A program made the position numbers and the translations under genes. From Pseudotabrizicola formosa (lineage in GTDB: Bacteria > Pseudomonadota > Alphaproteobacteria > Rhodobacterales > Rhodobacteraceae): a stretch of 64,000 nt of DNA. The DNA is taken from positions 310,001 through 374,000 of the forward strand of contig NZ_PJOM01000003.1 in assembly GCF_002900965.1 (NCBI RefSeq), in the 5' to 3' direction. How positions within the stretch are numbered: position 1 is the first letter of the stretch; each line of letters opens with the position of its first letter. The notes under the pieces were generated by a model. That model ran no database searches, had not been told where the DNA came from, and saw only the letters and a list, made by a program, of their open reading frames with translations. Below, piece by piece: positions 42,144 through 52,610 of this stretch.

Positions 42144-42160
42144 TGGTGGAGCCACGCGGG
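42144..42160. repeat. Left attachment site (tRNA-Ala 3' fragment)
   Basis: TGGTGGAGCCACGCGGG is identical to the right copy. It is followed by CACTCCACCA, so the site also reads as an inverted repeat TGGTGGAG/CTCCACCA. Confidence 0.9.
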
Positions 42161-42470
42161 CACTCCACCACATTTTCAAGCCATTGATACGCAAAGATAA
42201 TCAAGTGCGGGGTTAAGTCCTGTGTCGCCCTCTTGTGTCACACTTAGCGACAGCATAGAGGGATTTGCAAGGCTCAAGTCCTTAGCTCACTGGAATTGCT
42301 GACGCGGGTTTCGAGTAGGGAATGGCACAGCGGCTTCTCGTTTCCTGTCTTTCTAGTAACAGGAAGGAGTGCTGCCAGCATTGTGCACTGAGTGGTCCGA
42401 GGCACTGCATTCTCCATAATGGGTACTATCGTCCGTGGACTAATCGTCCACATCTAGCTTCTTGGTCGCC
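42161..42470. promoter_or_regulatory. Left-end noncoding region with tandem C-box-like operator
   Basis: About 310 bp without a gene. At 42422-42451 two related elements lie in tandem: GTACTATCGTCC, then the perfect inverted repeat GTGGAC-TAATC-GTCCAC (42435-42451). Their position 20-50 bp before the controller gene matches C-box operators of restriction-modification systems. CATAAT at 42415-42420 could be a -10. A separate inverted repeat TTCCTGT/ACAGGAA lies at 42342-42365. Confidence 0.6.
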
Positions 42471-42704
42471 ATGACAAATGAAGAGAGCCTTAAGGAGCTG
42501 GGCAGCCGCATCCGAGATAAGCGCAAGCAACTCGGAATGACGCAGGAACAGCTTGCACACCATGCTGAGCTGGACCGGTCTTATGTTGGTGGTATCGAAA
42601 GAGGTGAGCGCAATATCTCCTTTACCGTCCTTTGTCAGGTTGCTCGCGCACTAGCTGCTGATGTTGCGACGCTCACTATCGGCTTGCCTGGGCCGCACGC
42701 ATGA
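42471..42704 (+). CDS. HTH_XRE controller protein of the R-M module
   Basis: A 77-residue single-domain DNA-binding protein. LGSRIRDKRKQLGMTQEQLAHHAELDRSYVGGIERGERNIS is a canonical XRE helix-turn-helix (parts: RKQLGMTQEQLA, DRSYVGGIERGERN). The size and motif match C proteins, which activate the endonuclease gene late after entry into a new host so the methylase can act first. Its stop codon overlaps the endonuclease start by 4 bp. The ATG at 42471 is preferred to an upstream TTG at 42462. Confidence 0.88.
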   Translation: MTNEESLKELGSRIRDKRKQLGMTQEQLAHHAELDRSYVGGIERGERNISFTVLCQVARALAADVATLTIGLPGPHA

Positions 42705-43420
42705 AGTGGCTAAGGACATTGATACTGTTCGAGCGCGGCGGGGTTTTGGAAAGCCCTGACTGGGGAGACCTGCACCAGAGCTATCTTCGGGCCATTGCGA
42801 AAATAGATAATCCGAGGGGCAGTGGAAGGCTTAAGTTAAGGGAGAAAGTAAGGCAGCCGAATGGCCAGTGGAGCCGTAATGGCGTCAATTACCTCAAGGC
42901 GCGCTTTCTTGAACACATGAAGGGTGATGAAGGGTGGTTGCCCGAAGGCCTAGTGCAACTCAAGAGTGAAGCTATTTCACCAGAGCTGCGCCTCTACCCT
43001 TCTATGATGCCCCACAGGGAGCCAGTGACTTCGACCTTCGGTGGCTTCGACTTTGTAACGAGTGGCACACAAGGGGCTAAAGTTGCAATCGAATGGGAGA
43101 CTGGCAATATCTCGTCATCACATCGAAGCATGAACAAGCTAGCGATTGCGCTCCAGTTGGGGATCATCCAGGTTGGTGTTCTGATTGTGCCAAGTCGGTC
43201 CCTCTATCAACATTTGACGGATAGGGTCGGCAACATCAGCGAGTTGTCAGGCTATCTTAACATGTGGGCGGGCATGGCCACTGGGATAGAGCGCGGTTTG
43301 CTGGCTGTGACAGTTGTTGAGCATGATGATCTGACCGTAGATGAAGCCTTTCCGTACCTAACAGTTGGCATGGACGGCAGAGCGGAACAGGGAAGGAAGA
43401 AGGGTCGGCTAGCTGAATAG
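42701..43420 (+). CDS. BamHI-like type II restriction endonuclease
   Basis: A 239-residue protein. IEWETGNISSSHRSMNKLAI and the following LTDRVGNISEL closely match my memory of BamHI (EFETGNISSAHRSMNKLLLG and LTDRVTNFEEL). The PD-(D/E)xK-like catalytic residues of BamHI (D94, E111, E113) have counterparts D117 (GGFDF), E131 and E133 (EWETGN). BamHI cuts GGATCC; the same or a related site is likely but not shown. It is translated with the controller gene (4-bp overlap), and its 3' end overlaps the converging methylase gene by 12 bp. Confidence 0.88.
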   Translation: MKWLRTLILFERGGVLESPDWGDLHQSYLRAIAKIDNPRGSGRLKLREKVRQPNGQWSRNGVNYLKARFLEHMKGDEGWLPEGLVQLKSEAISPELRLYPSMMPHREPVTSTFGGFDFVTSGTQGAKVAIEWETGNISSSHRSMNKLAIALQLGIIQVGVLIVPSRSLYQHLTDRVGNISELSGYLNMWAGMATGIERGLLAVTVVEHDDLTVDEAFPYLTVGMDGRAEQGRKKGRLAE

Positions 43421-44362
43421 CTGACCCTGTACGCCCGAAGAACAGCTTGTGCACGTACACTCCGGGTTATCGGCTGCGCTAGTAGGGACTTGGACACGGT
43501 ACTTGTCCGATAGAGGCTTCCCGTTCTTCTTCCTCGCTTTTAGGCTAGCTTCGGTAAACAGCACATTCTTGTTGGCATGGATTTCACTGAGGTGGGCTTT
43601 GTCAGGTTCTAGATCCTCGAAGCGAGAAATTGCGTCAGCGCAGTCCAATTCAGATCCGACCCAGCGTCTACCGTTAAGCTCAGCCGCAACAAAGGTTGTG
43701 CCGGAACCCCCGAACGGGTCAAGCACGAGTGAGCCTGGGTCACTCGCCATGCTAACAATGCGGTCCATCAGTTTCAGAGGCAGTGCGTTCGCGGCCCTCT
43801 TCTTGTACTTAGCATGGCGAACGGGGGGTATATCGGTCCAGACATCAGTCAGGCTTACCCCTTTTGGGTTCATCTTGTCCTTGTAGCCGCCGTAGTCGCG
43901 CTGCTCCCCACCACAATGGCGACAGGAGGGCACTGGAAGTCTGTCCGGATGGAAGATCGAAGGCCTATCTCCCTTGACGAGGTAAAGCAGAGAGTAGTGG
44001 GCCGGATACAGCCGGTTCTGTATGGGTAAGCTGTACTTCATGTCCACCGTGATCCAATGGCGGAAGGTTAGGCTCCTTGAGGCATATGCACCAAGCTGCA
44101 GGTTCCACTTCGGCAGGTTGTACAAGAAGACAGACCCACCCGGCTTCACGGTGCGAATAATCTCATCCAACCACTGGCGGCACCAAGCAAGGTAGTCCTC
44201 TTCATGGAGCGCGTCGTTGATCTTGGAGCTATAGGCCTTGCCGAGGTTGAAGGGGGGATCTGCAAATGCAAGATCTACAGTTTCAGACGCAACATCCGAC
44301 AGCATCGACATGCAGTCGCCTTCGTACAGTGAGCCAAGAGGCGTTTCCATTTTGGGTATCAT
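43409..44362 (-). CDS. Site-specific DNA amino-methyltransferase (beta class)
   Basis: A 317-residue protein. Motif IV is FADPPFNLG (DPPF at 35-38) near the N-terminus, and the SAM-binding motif I, LDPFGGSGTT (215-223), is near the C-terminus; this order is that of beta-class N6-adenine or N4-cytosine enzymes. Which base it modifies cannot be told by eye. A CxxC (SCRHCGG) and a C-terminal CTCTSC could bind metal. It is convergent with the BamHI-like gene and is presumably its protective partner. Start uncertain: 44362 is chosen with GGTGA upstream; 44350, 44437 and 44461 are possible. Confidence 0.88.
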   Translation of the reverse strand: MIPKMETPLGSLYEGDCMSMLSDVASETVDLAFADPPFNLGKAYSSKINDALHEEDYLAWCRQWLDEIIRTVKPGGSVFLYNLPKWNLQLGAYASRSLTFRHWITVDMKYSLPIQNRLYPAHYSLLYLVKGDRPSIFHPDRLPVPSCRHCGGEQRDYGGYKDKMNPKGVSLTDVWTDIPPVRHAKYKKRAANALPLKLMDRIVSMASDPGSLVLDPFGGSGTTFVAAELNGRRWVGSELDCADAISRFEDLEPDKAHLSEIHANKNVLFTEASLKARKKNGKPLSDKYRVQVPTSAADNPECTCTSCSSGVQGQLFS

Positions 44363-45216
44363 AGTCACCAATATTGCTTGTCGCTGGCCTGACTGCAAGG
44401 CGAAAGTGTCCGAATTCGTGCAAAGGTCTGCTACCATAATTCGACTATTTGTGGTATCCATCCCCGCTTAGGCTGCTAGCCTTGGAAGGCCCCGTCGTCA
44501 AGGATAGCGCAGTAGTGCGCTCTCTAAGGAAAACTGACACATTTTTGTGTGCCCCTATCTACTCACCTCAAACTTTCCATTTGTCCCATACCCCCCTGAA
44601 TTGACGCTTGAGTGGCCTTGCCCGCATCTCGGCGGGGCCGAGGCATGCCAACATGGCGGATGAACCTTGGCAGCTTTGTTCTAGGCGGCAGTGCGATCAG
44701 GGTTTTCCCCACTAGACCTTGCCTTAGCGGGTTGTCTCAACCATGGCCGACAACATCACCCCTGGTCTTGCTGTTGCCTCATTGAAGCAAATGTCATTGG
44801 ATCAGCAGGACAAGTGCGTTCTCGGTGTGCGGCACGAATGGCAGGAATTTCCGACACATTTTTGTGTGGGGGGATATACAGTACTCCCGTGCGTCAATGC
44901 CCCCGTGCCGGGTCGTCTCTGTAGCGTTGGCCGAGCGTGCCTATAGCTACGGCTAAAGCATGCGTGACGATAGCCGCTAGCAGGAGCAAGGGCATCAAGC
45001 CTTGAGGTGCAGTAGCATCTGCAAGGGGCGGACATGGCGCAGCGCGGGCATGCGAACCATCAGCCAAGCACCAGCGCCATGGGCAGGATTGGTGCGGTGC
45101 CATTTGAGTATGCCTCAATAGGACCAGCTACAGGCCGGTCTGATAAGTGCCTATTGACAACCCATACCGAACCGATCATCAGCGAACCATCCAAAACGAA
45201 CCGATGGGTTTCCGCC
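44363..45216. other. Gene-poor region with short repeats
   Basis: About 850 bp without a convincing gene; small open frames lack ribosome sites and recognisable sequence. It holds two copies of the 16-bp hairpin-forming word GACACATTTTTGTGTG (44536-44551 and 44853-44868). Before the recombinase it holds three CGAACC(G)AT words about 15 bp apart (45168, 45183, 45197). These could be recombination or regulatory sites. Confidence 0.55.
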
Positions 45217-45834
45217 ATGTTCATCCGTGCCTACCTTCGCGCCTCAACCTCTGATCAGGATGCCAGCCGCGCCGCTGTTGATCTTGACGACTTTGCCTCC
45301 GACCGGGGGCTGACGATAGCAGCCCGATACACAGAGAACGAGAGTGGGGCCAAGCTGGAACGGCCCGAACTGTTCCGCCTTCTCGCTGACTGCCTGCCCG
45401 GTGACGTGCTGCTAGTGGAACAGGTTGACCGCCTGAGCCGCCTCAACGGGGCCGATTGGGAACGCCTCAAGGCGCAGATCGCAGCAAAGCGGGTCCGTGT
45501 TGTCGCGCTTGACTTGCCGACCTCGCACCAGTTGATGCAGCCGGAGGCCGATGAGTTCACGGCCCGGATGCTGGACGCGATTAACGGCATGATGCTGGAC
45601 ATGCTGGCTGCGATTGCCCGCAAGGACTACGTGGATAGGCGCAGGCGACAGGCGCAGGGCATCGTGAAGGCCAAGGCCGAGGGCGTCTATCGCGGACGGC
45701 CCGAAGATGTGAAGCGGAACTCCGCAATTGTCGGGATGCTACGGGGCGGACAAAGCTGGAGCAGCATCATCGCCGCGACAGGCTGTTCCCGATCTACGCT
45801 GGCGAGGCTGGCGAAGCGCGGGGCGGTGACATGA
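45217..45834 (+). CDS. Serine recombinase (resolvase family)
   Basis: A 205-residue resolvase/invertase. FIRAYLRASTSDQDASRA holds the catalytic serine (S10), and VEQVDRLSRLNGADWERL and the ARKDYVDRRRRQAQGIVKAKAEG E-helix region are conserved. A C-terminal helix-turn-helix (IIAATGCSRSTLARLAKRG) binds DNA. All active-site residues I can place are present, so it looks functional. The frame is open to 45034, but family homology starts at 45217. A decayed relative follows directly. Confidence 0.92.
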   Translation: MFIRAYLRASTSDQDASRAAVDLDDFASDRGLTIAARYTENESGAKLERPELFRLLADCLPGDVLLVEQVDRLSRLNGADWERLKAQIAAKRVRVVALDLPTSHQLMQPEADEFTARMLDAINGMMLDMLAAIARKDYVDRRRRQAQGIVKAKAEGVYRGRPEDVKRNSAIVGMLRGGQSWSSIIAATGCSRSTLARLAKRGAVT

Positions 45835-45907
45835 TGACCGAACCCCTTCGTTGGTTGGGCCTCCGCTTGCTATCGGTGTAACGGCAGGGGGGCATTTGAG
45901 GGCATAA

Positions 45908-46139
45908 TTGCTGGACGTGCTGGAAGGCATCACAGCAAAGGCGCAACGCTGCGGGCTAGGCATCGACACAGGCACGCCGACAGGCAGGCTTTTGCTCAAC
46001 ATGCTCAACATGCTCAACATGCTCAACATGCTAAGCAGAGGTCGCGGAGTTGCACAAGGCAGGCGTAGGGTCAACTGAGTTCGCCCGTCAACTCGGCATA
46101 GGTCGTGCATCGGTTTATCGGGTTTTGCCTGCCGGGTGA
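45908..46139 (+). pseudogene. Decayed serine resolvase with expanded 9-bp repeat
   Basis: In one frame, LGIDTGTPTGRLLLNML is the core resolvase motif (compare IDT.TP.GR....ML), preceded only by a short stub after a stop codon. After a repeat tract the reading continues in the next frame as AEVAELHKAGVGSTEFARQL, then GIGRASVYRVLPAG and a stop; this is the resolvase C-terminal helix-turn-helix. The first ~100 residues and the E-helix are gone. It differs from the intact resolvase upstream, so it is a second lineage. Confidence 0.8.
45993..46037 (+). repeat. 9-bp tandem repeat TGCTCAACA
   Basis: Four perfect units (45993-46028) and one changed unit TGCTAAGCA. They lie inside the decayed resolvase where LNML would occur once, coding LNM repeats, so slippage within a dead gene is the likely origin. 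Confidence 0.9.
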
Positions 46140-47044
46140 CGCGGACGGCTAATTCGGGCGCATTTGCCACAGCGCCAGCGGAGCGACCCTCACAGCGGCT
46201 CCGGCAAGAGATGCGGCATCGGTAGCCAGATCGTGCCAGCGGGTGTCTGGCGGGCTTAAATCCGGGGTTATCCGGTGCTCTAGGCCACGGCGCAACCTGC
46301 GTGGGCTTATGGGCATATCTATTCCTTTTCAACCGGCCTTTCGCCATGGCATCATCTGCCTTTCCACAGCCCTTTCCACCGGCATCCCGCCACGGGTAAT
46401 CCGGCCTTACCATAGATCAACCCGGCATCGCCGAGCCTAACGCCGCGTCCTAAGACAGAGCACTGGATCAGATACCTGGCATCAGCCAAGCCCGATCCTG
46501 CGTCCTAAGACAGCTAACCCGGCATATCGCGGGGGGGTGGGCATCTGGACGAACGGCATAGCAGGCTACAACTCCCTTTGTGCTTATCCCCGCGTCCCTA
46601 GAGGAAATGCATACACTTGCCCTCAGGGTGGTCGCCCCGCTCCTTGTCCACAAAACTTGCAGTACCCCCGCCAACACACATTCATGTGCTGTTGGATTTG
46701 TCCGCAGTTGGACTGCCATATTGTCTAACTGACACCTCTGGCGGCTATGGGAAAATGCCCTCATCGGCCTCCTTCTGGCAGCCGTCAAAACCTTGCCAAT
46801 GAGACCCTTGGACAGGTGCGGTGTCCACGGGGGGTCGCAAGGTATTGTTTTTAAATGGTAAAAATGGCCTCCGCCGTAAGAGGTTCATATGTTTTTACCT
46901 CGGGCCGTAGGCTGGTTTTCCCGGTGGCGCTCCAAGCCATTATCCCGGCATGCGCGGCAGCCAAAATATCCCGGTTATCCACTCATGCGAACAGTGCACA
47001 TCAGCACATCATCACGTCGATCACGTATCTTAGGAACATCACCC
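46140..47044. other. Noncoding stretch upstream of the helicase-like gene
   Basis: About 900 bp with no gene I can support. A 14-bp word GCGTCCTAAGACAG is repeated at 46445-46458 and 46500-46513. An AT-rich tract lies at about 46848-46865. It may hold the promoter of the helicase operon. Confidence 0.5.
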
Positions 47045-48556
47045 ATGACACATATCACCATCAAGGACCGGCCATGCGGCTGGGGCAAGAGCACAGAAAT
47101 ATTCTCCAGCTACAAGGCAGGTGAAAAGTACATCACGGTCCTGCCGCTCCTGTCGGAAGTGGACCGGGCGGTGAAACGCGCTGCCTCGGAAAGCAAGCAC
47201 ATCATGTATGCTCCGGTGGACACCCACGGCTCAAAGACAGACCATGTAACCGCCCTGATTAAAGCCGGGAAGTCAGTGGCGTGCACCCATGAACTTTTCT
47301 TTCGCCTAGGCACACTTGCCACCACCAAGACCGGCGAAACGCTGGATATTGTAGGTTCCTTGAGTGACCCTCAAAATGTAAGGGTATCGCACGCCGAGCA
47401 CTTCCTGCTGGATGACTTCCACGTCATCATTGATGAGGCCATCGACCCCTTCAATACCGTCAACACTGTGACACCGAACGACTTCCAAAAGGATTACGTC
47501 GAACTCGGGTTGGTGGAGGTTTGCCCGGATGGGAAGATTTCACCTACAGGTCTCTGGGATACCAGATACCGGGATGGTGGGCAGACGTTCGACAGGTCGC
47601 TGTACGAGCAAGCAAAATCCGGTGCGCTCTACACGGTCCAAGGCAAGCTATTTGTGCTCACCATACCCACGGAACTCATGCTCAGGCCGAAGTCTGTTAC
47701 CATCTATACCTATCTGTCGGGCGGCACTGTCCTTCTGCGGTTCATGCAAAGGCTACAGCAACAGCTAGTAGGCACGCCAGACGAGTTCACGCTGGAAATT
47801 GACCGGCTCGCTCCGGTTGACGAAGCAGCATGGCGACAGGACGTGCGCCGTGCACTGTCAATCGAGAGCATCCCGGTACTAGAAGGCTATCATTGGTCGT
47901 ATAGCAAGCAGTTGGCGACTTTCAGCAAGTCCGGTGGAAAAGTTGCAGCCCGCCGGGTGGGCATGGCGCTCAAGCATTGGTCTGGCAAGGAACTCGCAGT
48001 CACCCACAAGGGCACGGTGATGCTGACCTGTGCGCGAGACCTGTGGTGCGGAAGTTCAAACACGCAGCAGCCCATGGCCGGGCCACTCGCAAAGGATAGT
48101 CGGCTCTTCGGAAACGCAGTTCGTGAATACGATGAGGCAGGCTTTGCCGACGGCTGGAGCACAACCGGCGTGAAGTTCGTAGCCAACACCACCAGAGGCG
48201 TCAACGACTACATTCACTGTGGCACGGCAATCTACCTTTACGATCAACACCCTAATCCCAATGTCACCCTGTTCCTAGGCATGCCCAAAGGCTCAACTGC
48301 TGAGCGTGAGTTCTCGGATGCCTACGCCTTGTCTGAACTCGTGCAATGGCTTTTTCGGTCGTGCATTCGGTCTGGGGGCATGAACTCCATTCCGGACAAC
48401 ATCAGACCGCGACAGAAGGCAGTGATCTATATCCCTTCGGCCCGCATGCGGAACTTGCTGATCAATTGGCTTGCTACAGGGGAGGTGTGCTCTAGGGAGC
48501 GCAAGGCTTTCCCAACATCGCGTAAGACTTCGTTGTCGGAGAGGGTTGCAGCATGA
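47045..48556 (+). CDS. SF2-helicase-like ATPase of phage/plasmid type
   Basis: A 503-residue protein. The N-terminal RPCGWGKSTEI (GWGKST, 12-17) is a Walker A motif and FHVIIDEAIDPF (128-132) a DExx Walker B. Late in the protein TTRGVNDYIHCGTAIYL (~382) and LSELVQWLFRSCIRSGG (~430) resemble helicase motifs V and VI of DEAD-like proteins in phages and plasmids, followed by VIYIPSARMRNLLINWL. A role in replication or recombination of the element is an inference. Its stop overlaps the start of the next gene by 4 bp. Start ATG 47045 has a weak AGGA; a longer frame reaches 46889. Confidence 0.7.
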   Translation: MTHITIKDRPCGWGKSTEIFSSYKAGEKYITVLPLLSEVDRAVKRAASESKHIMYAPVDTHGSKTDHVTALIKAGKSVACTHELFFRLGTLATTKTGETLDIVGSLSDPQNVRVSHAEHFLLDDFHVIIDEAIDPFNTVNTVTPNDFQKDYVELGLVEVCPDGKISPTGLWDTRYRDGGQTFDRSLYEQAKSGALYTVQGKLFVLTIPTELMLRPKSVTIYTYLSGGTVLLRFMQRLQQQLVGTPDEFTLEIDRLAPVDEAAWRQDVRRALSIESIPVLEGYHWSYSKQLATFSKSGGKVAARRVGMALKHWSGKELAVTHKGTVMLTCARDLWCGSSNTQQPMAGPLAKDSRLFGNAVREYDEAGFADGWSTTGVKFVANTTRGVNDYIHCGTAIYLYDQHPNPNVTLFLGMPKGSTAEREFSDAYALSELVQWLFRSCIRSGGMNSIPDNIRPRQKAVIYIPSARMRNLLINWLATGEVCSRERKAFPTSRKTSLSERVAA

Positions 48557-49608
48557 ACGGTATTATCCAACCTGAGCAGTTCCCAAACGTGTCATCCTTC
48601 CTCGACCGGCACAAGAAGCTGCGCTGGAGGTATCGCAAGGACGGGCGGCAGGCGTGCCTTGGCACGGATTATGGCAGCGCGGAGTTCATCAAGAGGTACG
48701 CCGCAGCCACGAACTCCGCGCCTCTGCATCCAAGCGACATTGCCGCCCGCGTTCCGTCGCACTTCCAGCAGGGCACTTTGTCTCGGCTCATTGACGCATG
48801 GTATCGGTCCGCGCACTTCGAGGCACTGGGCAAGGGCACCCGAAAAGGCTACCGATGCCAAGCTGAAAGACTGAGGGGCAGCTACGGGGATTACATGGTG
48901 CAAGCCATGCAGCATAAGCACATCAAGGACATGATGGCCGCAAAGGCAGGGATGCCGAACGCCGCGAACAATGTCCTGCGTATTCTTCGGTTCGTCTTGG
49001 ATGTGGCAATAGAGACAGGGCTGATCGGGCATAACGTAGCACGGGACGTAAAGAAGTATGCCACGCCCGACGATGGCTTCCACACGTGGACGGAGCAGGA
49101 GATCAGCGCATTCTGTGCCGTTCACCATCCGGGGAGTGTTGCGCATACGTGCTTGACCACCATGCTTTACACTGGGGCTGCGCTTAAGGATGCCGCCAGC
49201 ATGGGGCGGGCGAACCTTTGCGACGGACGCATCTGCTACATCAAGAATGCTACAAAGACCCGCGCTGGGGTTGAGGTCAATATCCCGATCCACAGTGCCC
49301 TTGCCGCATGTTTGGCACGTCTCCCGCCTGAGTTCGAGTTCTTCCTACAAACCGCCAAGGGGACCGCACCCACTCCGGGCACCCTTGGAAACTACATGCG
49401 GAAATGGTGCGATGCAGCCGAGTTGACAGAGTGCAGCAGCCACGGTCTGCGCAAGGCTTTTGAACGTCGCTTAGGCGAGGCGGGCAGGAAAGAGCAGGAA
49501 ATTGCCGCAGTATTGGGCTTTGTTGATACCAATTCCCCGCATATGCGTTTAGGAATGGACGTGCGGAGTGAACTTGCAGACAGGGCTATTTCAAGTATTG
49601 CTGTCTAA
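48553..49608 (+). CDS. Degenerate tyrosine-recombinase-like protein (probably inactive)
   Basis: A 351-residue protein with the full integrase layout: N-terminal arm-like domain, core-binding domain (~70-170), and a catalytic-type domain. Key residues are missing. The first Arg site in LYTGAALKD is A210. HGLRK (H297, R300) is kept. The later His site is F323 (LGFVD), and the position ten residues on, where Tyr should be, is L333. It therefore probably binds DNA without cutting. It is translationally coupled to the helicase-like gene and followed by 12-bp repeats. Confidence 0.82.
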   Translation: MNGIIQPEQFPNVSSFLDRHKKLRWRYRKDGRQACLGTDYGSAEFIKRYAAATNSAPLHPSDIAARVPSHFQQGTLSRLIDAWYRSAHFEALGKGTRKGYRCQAERLRGSYGDYMVQAMQHKHIKDMMAAKAGMPNAANNVLRILRFVLDVAIETGLIGHNVARDVKKYATPDDGFHTWTEQEISAFCAVHHPGSVAHTCLTTMLYTGAALKDAASMGRANLCDGRICYIKNATKTRAGVEVNIPIHSALAACLARLPPEFEFFLQTAKGTAPTPGTLGNYMRKWCDAAELTECSSHGLRKAFERRLGEAGRKEQEIAAVLGFVDTNSPHMRLGMDVRSELADRAISSIAV

Positions 49609-49925
49609 CTTGCATTGCACTCGTAGTGAACTCAAGCAACGTACTTAGTATAAGAGTTAGTATAAGAGTTAGTATAAGAGTTGGCATCATAGTTAGCATC
49701 AGACTTGCTATATCTTGGATGCACGCAGGGCACGTATATCAACTACGATTTGAAATTATTTGATGACCGTGCTATTAATTGTCTTGCGCATTGATAAGCC
49801 GTGTGCCAAAAGGGTTGCATCCGGATGGCGGCTTGACACTATCACCGGACGGCGACTGACTGTGCGGCGCAGTTAGCTATCAATCCACTAGGGCTGTTAG
49901 TTGACTGCGCCAGCATAGTGCAATC
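49609..49925. other. Intergenic region with iteron-like repeats
   Basis: 317 bp between the two degenerate integrase genes. Besides the 12-bp repeats (49645-49704) it is AT-rich from 49690 to 49800. No gene seen. Confidence 0.6.
49645..49704. repeat. 12-bp iteron-like direct repeats
   Basis: Three perfect units of TTAGTATAAGAG (49645-49680) are followed by two diverged units TTGGCATCATAG and TTAGCATCAGAC in phase. This is like plasmid iterons or integrase arm sites. Units abut without spacers. Confidence 0.9.
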
Positions 49926-50888
49926 ATGTACAGGATCAGAGTTAATATGTCGGCATTTGTATGCTGCGGCGTTGGACTTCCCTATGTCAAGCAACACACT
50001 GGACGGGACGGAGTGAAGCATCTTTGCTTTCAACGCAGTGGCTATTCTGTGCGCCTTGCATCTGATCAGCATCAGCCCGGCTTCTTTCGCTTGTATCGAG
50101 CCGCTATGCTTCGGTCTGGCGTCACTGAACACCAAGTTCGGGGCATCTTGCAGCGCACTCCCGGAACACTCAGTCATGCCGTGCTGCAATGGAAGGTAGC
50201 TATGCAACAGGTCGGGAGGCAGGTCGCTATGTCAGCATCCGACCGGCGGCTGGCAGACGACATCAGCAGTAGGGAGGGGTGGCTGCACTTGGATGAACTC
50301 ACCGCCATTCATATTGACTTCATCTGCGGCAGAGCGACGGCGAGCACCCTTGTGCAAAACCGGCGGCTCCAGGTTCTGCGGCTGGTTGCGCGAAACGCGG
50401 GCCGTACAGCGCCGCTAGCCTTGAGCCTGCCCGTTGCTCGTAAAACCTTGCAGAGGGCTGCTCAGCCTCTCCCCTGCTGGACTGCCGATGATCTGAGGGC
50501 ATTCTGCCTGAGGCTCCCTGTTGGCACGGTCGAGTATACCGCCGCTAACCTTATGATTTGGCTCAGGCTCAGCCCTGCAGCACTCGTGCATCTTGATGCG
50601 GATGAACTCGATGCGCTCTGTGATCCACGCAGCAGGTTTGGGCTGGAAGTTCACTCTGCCTTCGTCGCTCTACCTTCCGGCCTGTATGGTGCTGTGGAAG
50701 AAATGCGCCGAAGTGGTGCAGGGCTAGCGGCGCGGATGCGGGCGGCAACTGCGCAGGCGGGTGTTCCGAACTTGACGAGGCAAAGCGTTGTGAAGTTGAA
50801 TGCGGAACTCGTCGGTGCAATGATAGCACGTCCTGCCTCAAGTGGTAGGTACGGGGTACTTGTTGATGGCCTGCTGCAACTGCAATAG
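49926..50888 (+). CDS. Second degenerate tyrosine-recombinase-like protein
   Basis: A 320-residue protein. The N-terminus (LPYVKQHTGRDGVKHLCFQR) resembles the start of Rhodobacteraceae site-specific integrases. PCWTADDLRAFCLRLPVGTV aligns with HTWTEQEISAFCAVHHPGSV of the 48553 gene, and the following strands align in order. The catalytic Arg region reads WLRLSPAAL, and no HxLR, GH or Tyr motif is left. It looks like a diverged paralogue kept as a DNA-binding protein; decay is the alternative. ATG 49926 or 49947; neither has a good ribosome site. Its end overlaps the converging integrase by 51 bp. Confidence 0.62.
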   Translation: MYRIRVNMSAFVCCGVGLPYVKQHTGRDGVKHLCFQRSGYSVRLASDQHQPGFFRLYRAAMLRSGVTEHQVRGILQRTPGTLSHAVLQWKVAMQQVGRQVAMSASDRRLADDISSREGWLHLDELTAIHIDFICGRATASTLVQNRRLQVLRLVARNAGRTAPLALSLPVARKTLQRAAQPLPCWTADDLRAFCLRLPVGTVEYTAANLMIWLRLSPAALVHLDADELDALCDPRSRFGLEVHSAFVALPSGLYGAVEEMRRSGAGLAARMRAATAQAGVPNLTRQSVVKLNAELVGAMIARPASSGRYGVLVDGLLQLQ

Positions 50889-52469
50889 CGTATAGCCTTC
50901 CCGATTATATGTGCCCTGTGTTACTCCCTTGCGTTCATGCCCGACGATAGACTGGCAAACAGGGTCTTCCACTCCAGCTTGTATAAGTCGCGTCACCATT
51001 GTGTGCCGTAAGCCATGAAAGACATGCGCCTTGGACTTGATGCCAAGTGCAGGTGTCAGAACGTCATTAAACCATCTGCCGAGTGCGCGGCCATAACCTG
51101 CCTTCGGCTCGAAGTTATAATCCGGGAACATTCTGCTAGTTGTCCGGCTGCATATGTCTCTGTGATAGTCGAGCAGTCCGAGTTCAATTAAGCGGTTGTG
51201 CACAGGAACCTTGCGGCGGGCAGCAGCAGTCTTGAACTTCTTGTTGCCCACATCGTCTTCGCTCTCGAACAGGTTGAAGTACCATATGCCGTCTTGCTGT
51301 TGCAGGTCTGCCGCTTCCATCTGGCATATCTCATTAAGTCGTGCGCCGCTGAACATGCCTATCAAGCTAGCCCACTTGTGGCTCTGCTTCTTGACAAGTC
51401 CACGGGTGTTCTGCGTGAGTTCAGCGTATACAGCTTGCAGTGCCTCGGGTTTGAACGCTTGGCGCTGTTCCCTGCTTTCCTTCCGACTGCCCAACACCCT
51501 CATGCCCTCAAACGGGTTCGTTTCAGTGTGTCCGTTCTTCTCAGCCCAATCGAAGAAACTCTGATAGATGCTGATATAGCTGTTCACTGTGACTGTGGAC
51601 ATTGGCGCGATGCCGGGAAGTGCTGCGGCCTCCCTTATGGTCAAGTGGCGGGTTGCCTGTTGCTTGTTCCTGTTCGGCGGTAACTTGGACACAACCTGCT
51701 TCACGTCCCTTGCGTGTTGCTTGGTGATGGTCCCTATCTTGGTGTCGGTGCCGAGCAATTCTGTCAGTGCGTCAAGCGCAGCCTGTTTCTTGGCGAACGT
51801 GCCAACCTCCCAACTCTTTGCGCGGCGGTTCTCTGCGATGTATTCCGCTATCGCGTCTGCCAAGCTGATGCCCTCAAGTGCCGCTGATGCTGGTTCTGTG
51901 AACGGCGCAGGGACATCGGTGCTGTTGAAGTCGTAGTGGTTGAGCGCGGAGTGATGCTTATCGAACTCCCTGAGCATGTCGCGCCAAGCCATCTGAATTT
52001 CCCGCAGCAGGCGTTCGGGCCGTTCCTCTGCCTCGGATTGGGGCAGGCCGCTGGAGGCACAGAAACGGCTCAGGAAGGGCTGCGGATCATCGGCTAGGGC
52101 AATGGCGCGGAAATCCTCCGGCGTGCCCTCTGCGAGCATCAGGGATGTCTGGAGAGGGGCGAGTGCCAGTTCTGACATCGGGCCACCCGCGCCAACGCCA
52201 TCAAGCATCTTGACCAGCCGGGCCTTGAAGGCCGCATGCACGACTTTCCGAAGTTCATCATGCCGCATGGTGCTGAGTTCTCCCGTTCGCTCTAGCGATG
52301 TGCCGAAGGCAGCTAGTTCACGGGCAAGCGTCGTGGCCTCCCTCGGGCATCGCGTCTGCAACGAGATCCGGATACACCGTCGTCCATCGTTAGCAGCAGC
52401 CGAGCGAAGCGGCCAGCGAAAGTAGAATATGCTGTGCCGGGAGCGTGTCAGGTAAGCATGTACTAGCAT
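50838..52469 (-). CDS. int: Tyrosine-type site-specific integrase
   Basis: A 543-residue integrase. The catalytic set is complete: R377 (FSGARLNEI), a Lys near 411, H485 and R488 (HGLRHT), H511 (IVGHERKG) and Y521 (QGTYN). A long N-terminal region (1-200) precedes the core-binding domain (~200-320). It lies 65 bp from the tRNA-Ala 3' end on the same strand, so it is the likely enzyme for insertion and excision at the 17-bp att core. No excisionase gene was found. No terminator separates it from the tRNA. Confidence 0.95.
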   Translation of the reverse strand: MLVHAYLTRSRHSIFYFRWPLRSAAANDGRRCIRISLQTRCPREATTLARELAAFGTSLERTGELSTMRHDELRKVVHAAFKARLVKMLDGVGAGGPMSELALAPLQTSLMLAEGTPEDFRAIALADDPQPFLSRFCASSGLPQSEAEERPERLLREIQMAWRDMLREFDKHHSALNHYDFNSTDVPAPFTEPASAALEGISLADAIAEYIAENRRAKSWEVGTFAKKQAALDALTELLGTDTKIGTITKQHARDVKQVVSKLPPNRNKQQATRHLTIREAAALPGIAPMSTVTVNSYISIYQSFFDWAEKNGHTETNPFEGMRVLGSRKESREQRQAFKPEALQAVYAELTQNTRGLVKKQSHKWASLIGMFSGARLNEICQMEAADLQQQDGIWYFNLFESEDDVGNKKFKTAAARRKVPVHNRLIELGLLDYHRDICSRTTSRMFPDYNFEPKAGYGRALGRWFNDVLTPALGIKSKAHVFHGLRHTMVTRLIQAGVEDPVCQSIVGHERKGVTQGTYNREGYTLLQLQQAINKYPVPTT

Positions 52470-52534
52470 CGTGTGTCACCCCGTGGTGCCGCACCTGCGT
52501 ATCTGCTATCCTAAGTCCTTGAAAAGTAAGAGTT

Positions 52535-52610
<76 letters not shown>

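What the first reader, a model, noticed from the sequence alone, without database searches (positions are those of the whole stretch)
47045..50888. Possible new module: SF2-like helicase, two catalytically dead integrase paralogues and iterons
The helicase-like gene is translationally coupled (4-bp overlap) to an integrase-like gene lacking the first Arg (A210), the late His (F323) and the Tyr (L333). Five 12-bp repeats follow, then a second integrase-like gene lacking all catalytic motifs. Preserved open frames of 351 and 320 codons argue for function without strand cleavage. Hypothesis: the dead integrases bind the repeats and work with the helicase in replication, copy control or control of excision.
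Basis: partly seen in the sequence, partly recalled or inferred. Interest (0 to 1): 0.82.

Follow-up and report, generated by a model that had tools for sequence, protein, structure and literature searches.

The report
Conserved dead integrases in mobile element
A 10-kb mobile element inserted in a tRNA gene carries two relatives of DNA-cutting integrases that have lost the cutting residues yet are kept by selection, one made together with a helicase and one downstream of a short repeat array, so they probably work as DNA-binding control proteins rather than being dying genes.

Summary
The locus lies in a 10.4-kb integrative element (42144-52551) in tRNA-Ala(GGC), bounded by a 17-bp att repeat; five same-genus genomes have the exact empty site. 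Gene 1 is an SF2 helicase of an unnamed family (phrog_2467; fold confirmed) that recurs in many tRNA-bounded elements, phages and plasmids. Gene 2 (dead integrase 1) overlaps it by 4 bp and lacks the catalytic Lys, late His/Trp and Tyr that almost all of 85 relatives keep; A210 is ancestral, not a loss. Gene 3 (dead integrase 2) is truncated after the HxxR position. Neither is decaying: dN/dS is 0.33 and 0.14, below every neutral simulation. They are not one module. Element L012 has helicase + dead integrase 1 without gene 3 or repeats. A 5.9-kb element (L261) has the 12-bp arrays + dead integrase 2 without the helicase pair. A third gene-3 homologue sits by the same type of integrase at tRNA-Cys in another genus. 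Best reading: repeat-binding regulatory or architectural proteins like SPbeta MrpR. DNA binding and any replication role remain untested.

The parts
42144..42160 (.). attL: 17-bp copy of the tRNA-Ala 3' end, TGGTGGAGCCACGCGGG
   Evidence: empty sites with exactly this 17-bp overlap in same-genus genomes
52535..52551 (.). attR: same 17 bp inside tRNA-Ala(GGC), 52535-52610 (-)
42701..43420 (+). cargo: BamHI-like restriction endonuclease
   Evidence: Pfam BamHI 3e-28; PADLOC REase_II
43409..44461 (-). cargo: type II DNA methyltransferase
   Evidence: Pfam N6_N4_Mtase 1.5e-38; PADLOC MTase_II
45217..45834 (+). serine resolvase; backbone gene shared by all three elements at this tRNA-Ala
   Evidence: Pfam Resolvase 1.8e-21; 94.6-97.5% identity in L012 and L261
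45993..46032 (.). 9-bp tandem array TGCTCAACA, 4.4 copies (10.6 in L261, none in L012)
46830..47044 (+). conserved leader upstream of the helicase, 97% identical to L012 against 86% at third codon positions; candidate control or origin region
47045..48556 (+). P0001: SF2 helicase, phrog_2467 family
48553..49608 (+). P0002: dead tyrosine recombinase 1 (R211L, K233A, H323F, Y332R; H297 and R300 kept), overlapping the helicase stop by 4 bp
49644..49715 (+). 12-bp tandem array (about six units, three perfect TTAGTATAAGA-type)
   Evidence: related arrays in L261
49926..50888 (+). P0003: dead tyrosine recombinase 2, ending shortly after the HxxR position; conserved in L261 and L271
50838..52469 (-). 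P0004: catalytically complete tyrosine integrase of the element, convergent with P0003 (51-bp overlap)

Best explanation
The locus is part of a tRNA-Ala-inserted integrative element. P0001 is an SF2 helicase that processes the element's DNA, most likely after excision (inferred). P0002 and P0003 are tyrosine recombinases that have lost catalysis but are maintained as DNA-binding proteins (loss and selection shown; binding inferred). P0003 most likely binds the 12-bp array upstream of its gene through its lambda-Int-like N-terminal and core-binding domains, and acts as an MrpR-like repressor or architectural factor controlling the element's excised or replicating state. P0002 is co-translated with the helicase and most likely targets or regulates it, possibly through the conserved leader upstream of the operon. 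The two dead integrases belong to two separable units on one resolvase + integrase backbone; this window carries both.
For: Element boundaries and empty sites. P0002: H297 and R300 in all relatives, Tyr and Lys in nearly all; P0002 and L012 alone share K233A, H323F, Y332R; 58 amino-acid changes against 82.5 expected under neutrality, minimum 67 in 2000 simulations. P0003: dN/dS 0.14, 33 changes against 74.4 expected, minimum 60; dN/dS 0.26-0.37 against a 71-74% identical homologue in another genus. Same convergent P0003/P0004-type pair at tRNA-Ala (window, L261) and tRNA-Cys (L271). 12-bp periodicity in window and L261, absent from L012, which also lacks P0003. P0002 model matches lambda Int bound to DNA, and also the dead-recombinase repressors MrpR (8a0a) and phi3T SroF (9rd5). 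MrpR binds a 15-bp repeated element and has no recombinase activity (PMC10516654). Helicase family in five other tRNA-bounded elements besides the window and L012, next to parAB in an Acinetobacter plasmid and in a Macrococcus plasmid without a Pfam Rep protein.
Against: No binding or expression data. The P0003-array pairing rests on two elements of one genus; in L271 no clear array was found, though the contig ends about 700 bp upstream. Most P0004-family integrases have no P0003 within about 1.5 kb. P0002 is about twice as relaxed (dN/dS 0.33) as its neighbours (0.12-0.19). L261 has no helicase, so the helicase is dispensable for that element's persistence. The conserved leader has only chance-level DnaA-box matches.
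Confidence: 0.45

Rival explanations
1. Replication reading: the element replicates after excision like a plasmid; a dead integrase binds the 12-bp iterons as initiator or copy-control protein and brings in the helicase.
For: AT-rich 12-bp arrays (42-45% GC segments); a resolvase gene in the backbone; helicase homologues in plasmids next to parAB or without a Pfam Rep; profile of the helicase family weakly resembles herpesvirus origin-binding proteins.
Against: Arrays + P0003 (L261) and helicase + P0002 (L012) occur apart; most helicase elements have no dead integrase; no Rep family match; the origin-binding resemblance is not significant (E 0.5) and is not among the Foldseek hits shown.
Confidence: 0.2
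2. Recombination-control reading: the dead integrases act in the excision/integration complex as directionality factors or dominant-negative partners of the active integrase P0004.
For: P0003 is convergent with a P0004-type integrase at two different tRNA targets in two genera; no recognisable excisionase was seen in the 5.9-kb element L261; lambda-Int-like arm-binding domain in the P0002 model.
Against: P0002 and P0003 belong to a different recombinase family from P0004; the arrays lie near P0003, not at the att ends; most P0004-family integrases do without P0003.
Confidence: 0.2
3. Decay: both integrase-like genes are passenger pseudogenes from earlier insertions.
For: Active relatives of P0002 are integrases beside other tRNA genes, so it is a captured integrase; further loss of R211 in this window; P0003 lacks a C-terminus.
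Against: Purifying selection on both, below all 2000 neutral simulations each; dead state shared before the split of two elements; a 40-residue in-frame deletion in L271 without frameshift.
Confidence: 0.1

Closest known systems
MrpR (YopR) of Bacillus prophage SPbeta (PDB 8A0A, PMC10516654)
   Same: Tyrosine-recombinase fold without recombinase activity, in a mobile element that excises with another recombinase; binds a short repeated DNA element (15-bp SPBRE).
   Different: MrpR keeps Tyr and Lys and lost Arg, His and late His/Trp; P0002 keeps HxxR and lost Lys, late His and Tyr. MrpR sites are dispersed operators, here a tandem 12-bp array. Only fold-level similarity was found; binding here untested.
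SroF of phage phi3T (PDB 9rd5, 9rgl)
   Same: Tyrosine-recombinase-fold repressor by its PDB title, matched by the P0002 model.
   Different: Only the PDB titles were available; no paper was found.
Active tRNA-targeting integrases of Rhodobacterales islands (e.g. L016-L029)
   Same: 40-45% identical to P0002, same three-domain layout, TGAAR motif.
   Different: They keep Lys, HxxR, late His and Tyr and sit beside tRNA genes.
phrog_2467 proteins of SPbeta-like and Acinetobacter phages
   Same: Same SF2 helicase family as P0001 (E 4e-25).
   Different: Function undescribed; in about ten viral contigs the gene lies upstream of a YonO/QDE-1-like RNA polymerase family, absent here.
Small tRNA-inserted, defence-carrying integrative elements
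   Same: Integrase beside the tRNA, att repeat of the tRNA end, restriction-modification cargo, 6-15 kb.
   Different: Defined here by an SF2 helicase; no relaxase or conjugation genes were recognised.

Membership tests
Dead tyrosine-recombinase regulators (MrpR/SroF type) | tyrosine-recombinase fold | tested here: met
   P0002: lambda Int 1z1g E 2e-12, MrpR 8a0a E 4e-4, SroF 9rd5 E 4e-5; P0003 by hhalign to the P0002 family
Dead tyrosine-recombinase regulators (MrpR/SroF type) | loss of catalytic residues | tested here: met
   P0002 lacks Lys, late His/Trp and Tyr against 85 relatives; P0003 lacks His of HxxR and the C-terminal part
Dead tyrosine-recombinase regulators (MrpR/SroF type) | maintained by selection | tested here: met
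   dN/dS 0.33 (P0002) and 0.14 (P0003), below all neutral simulations
Dead tyrosine-recombinase regulators (MrpR/SroF type) | binds a repeated DNA element and represses the mobile element | not testable with these tools
   12-bp arrays co-occur with P0003 in the two elements at this tRNA-Ala that have it; no binding data
Catalytically active tyrosine integrase | complete R-K-HxxR-H/W-Y set | tested here: not met
   P0002 and P0003 fail; P0004 has the R, HxxR, late His and Tyr
SF2 helicase | two RecA-like domains with Walker A/B and motif VI arginines | tested here: met
   invariant K15, D130-E131, Q434, R438, R442; SF2 folds in Foldseek; activity not tested
Herpes UL9-type origin-binding helicase | sequence or fold similarity to origin-binding proteins | tested here: inconclusive
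   E 0.5 in a profile search of PDB sequences, Pfam Herpes_ori_bp E 0.15 in one family member, not among the listed Foldseek hits
Iteron plasmid replicon | known Rep initiator domain | tested here: not met
   no Pfam Rep match in P0001-P0004
Iteron plasmid replicon | direct repeats at an origin | tested here: inconclusive
   12-bp arrays present; origin function untested
Pseudogene | neutral substitution pattern, stops or frameshifts | tested here: not met

The most novel reading that the evidence does not exclude
Small alphaproteobacterial tRNA elements have repeatedly turned dead integrases into repeat-binding initiator or copy-control proteins of a plasmid-like stage, in this window with a co-translated SF2 helicase: a type of replication control built from recombinases.
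Probability: 0.15. Interest if true: 0.8.

Novelty: new variant of a known kind. Interest (0 to 1): 0.52.

Why it matters
It indicates that domestication of integrases as non-cutting DNA-binding proteins, shown in Bacillus phages (MrpR), also happened in Alphaproteobacteria, for two different proteins in one small element family, one of them downstream of a tandem repeat array. It gives a concrete test of whether such proteins control excision, transcription or replication, and it points to an unnamed SF2 helicase family that recurs across tRNA-inserted defence-carrying elements, phages and plasmids.

Tried and rejected
Reading P0003 as a fresh truncation at the cargo junction: suggested by the window/L012 comparison, rejected when L261 showed the same C-terminus and strong purifying selection. 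Remnant of the ancestral tRNA att site of P0002's relatives in the element: none found. The repeat elsewhere in the genome: none. Rfam: only the tRNA and one sub-threshold hit. DnaA boxes: chance level. P0003 relatives in plasmids or viral contigs: none. Helicase as a known defence protein: no PADLOC or NCBIfam match. Genes near the helicase in viral contigs were scanned for a replication signature: YonO-like polymerase, integrases and HNH genes, no clear replication set.
Full report
Observation. The helicase ORF 47045-48556 and the integrase-like ORF 48553-49608 share ATGA; the same 4-bp overlap is in the relative L012. The 12-bp array is not chance and spans about six units, 49644-49715.

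The element. The island is an integrative element of 10,408 bp between two copies of TGGTGGAGCCACGCGGG, the 3' end of tRNA-Ala(GGC). In five genomes of the same genus the two flanks meet at this repeat, i.e. the site is empty (L262-L266). The active integrase P0004 lies beside the tRNA. Cargo includes a BamHI-like endonuclease and a methyltransferase. Two other genomes of the genus carry the same backbone (resolvase + P0004) at the same tRNA-Ala: L012/L260 (10.7 kb) and L261 (5.9 kb).

Helicase. P0001 matches phrog_2467 (4e-25), a family of unknown function, and no Pfam, NCBIfam or PADLOC family. Family alignments show invariant helicase motifs, and the predicted structure matches SF2 helicases. 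Relatives are in Acinetobacter, Vibrio, Fusobacterium and SPbeta-type phages, Acinetobacter plasmids (next to parAB in the one examined), and a Macrococcus plasmid. In the same order the gene recurs in tRNA-bounded elements of 9.4 to 14.7 kb with restriction or other cargo (L064, L067, L068, L069, L071), without a dead integrase beside it. In L064, the next closest relative (52%), the directly following downstream gene is an HNH-like gene instead. So the helicase belongs to a wider element family and its downstream partner varies.

Dead integrase 1 (P0002). Its relatives, 40-45% identical, are integrases beside tRNA-Lys, -Ser, -Arg or -Met genes. In 85 viral-contig relatives H297 and R300 are always kept, and Tyr and Lys nearly always; P0002 and its L012 orthologue alone share K233A, H323F and Y332R. 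Alanine at 210 is common in the clade, with Arg at 211; L012 keeps R211, the window has Leu. The three shared losses therefore came before the split of these two elements. Since the split dN/dS is 0.33 over 350 codons, with no stop; 58 amino-acid changes are fewer than in any of 2000 neutral simulations (mean 82.5, minimum 67). The other genes give 0.12-0.19, so constraint is real but weaker. The model (pLDDT 89) has the arm-binding, core-binding and catalytic domains of lambda Int, and also matches MrpR and SroF.

Dead integrase 2 (P0003). It aligns with the P0002 family from residue 19 to just past the HxxR position and has no segment for the late His and Tyr. In L261 an 89.6% identical, intact gene sits in the same convergent position with P0004; dN/dS is 0.14, and 33 changes are far fewer than in any neutral simulation (mean 74.4, minimum 60). 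In another genus (G757, L271) an intact homologue with a 40-residue in-frame deletion (71% identical over aligned codons, dN/dS 0.26-0.37) is convergent with a P0004-type integrase at tRNA-Cys. Thus P0003 is a maintained gene. It is not obligatory: most other P0004-family integrases have no such neighbour within about 1.5 kb.

Repeats. L012 lacks both P0003 and the 12-bp repeats. L261 has P0003 and AT-rich tracts with 12-bp periodicity upstream of it, with units such as CCTAGTATAAGA that resemble the window's TTAGTATAAGA. A 9-bp array, TGCTCAACA, shows the same pattern (4.4 copies, 10.6 copies, none). No clear array was seen in L271, whose contig ends about 700 bp upstream.

Interpretation. 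Two units assort independently on one backbone: helicase + dead integrase 1, and arrays + dead integrase 2; this window has both. Shown: loss of catalytic residues by sequence, purifying selection, element boundaries, separability. Inferred: that P0003 binds the array, that P0002 acts with or on the helicase, and that either controls the excised state. MrpR of SPbeta, a recombinase-fold protein without recombinase activity that binds a 15-bp repeated element and represses the prophage (PMC10516654), is the closest characterised parallel, and its authors suggest that such recruitment is more widespread. I therefore place this as a new variant of a known kind. The replication and recombination-control readings remain open at lower probability; plain decay is contradicted by the selection tests.

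Limits. The dN/dS estimates rest on pairs of sequences with a simple counting method and a simple neutral simulation. The array association rests on two elements. Genomes were sampled, not exhausted. The one scan of the public genome collection found no close relative of P0001 besides L012.

Noticed in passing
L079, L083, L085, L095, L102, L107, L112, L134, L143, L147: In these viral contigs a member of one protein cluster (10 proteins; 8 of all scanned neighbours match the PF05183 YonO/QDE-1-like RNA polymerase model) lies downstream of the P0001-family helicase, and in five of them an integrase-like gene of one cluster lies upstream.
   Followed up: partly
window 45993-46032; L261 14113-14207: 9-bp tandem array TGCTCAACA downstream of the resolvase, varying from 4.4 to 10.6 copies and absent from L012.
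   Followed up: partly
window 46830-47044: Non-coding leader of the helicase is more conserved (97%) than third codon positions of the gene (86%); the helicase frame is also open upstream to an ATG at 46889.
   Followed up: partly
L013 8680-18943: A broken P0001-family helicase beside an integrase and a run of genes resembling a defence cluster (HATPase, large ATPase, AIPR-like); assigned by eye only.
   Followed up: no
L069 1-11343: An 11.3-kb contig that begins and ends with the same tRNA-Leu sequence and carries integrase, restriction-modification-like genes and the helicase; could be a circular form or an assembly edge.
   Followed up: no
L016-L029, between tRNA and integrase: Most active relatives of P0002 carry a dyad of the type GGCGAACC...GGTTCGCC between the tRNA and the 3' end of the integrase gene.
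   Followed up: no
L261 12142-12375: Left of the small element's attL the chromosomal flank is replaced by other DNA with a tRNA-Arg gene, suggesting tandem insertion at this tRNA-Ala.
   Followed up: no
L065 8353-8769 and L068 7395-7784: Similar small ORFs directly downstream of the helicase in two other elements, where this window has the dead integrase.
   Followed up: no
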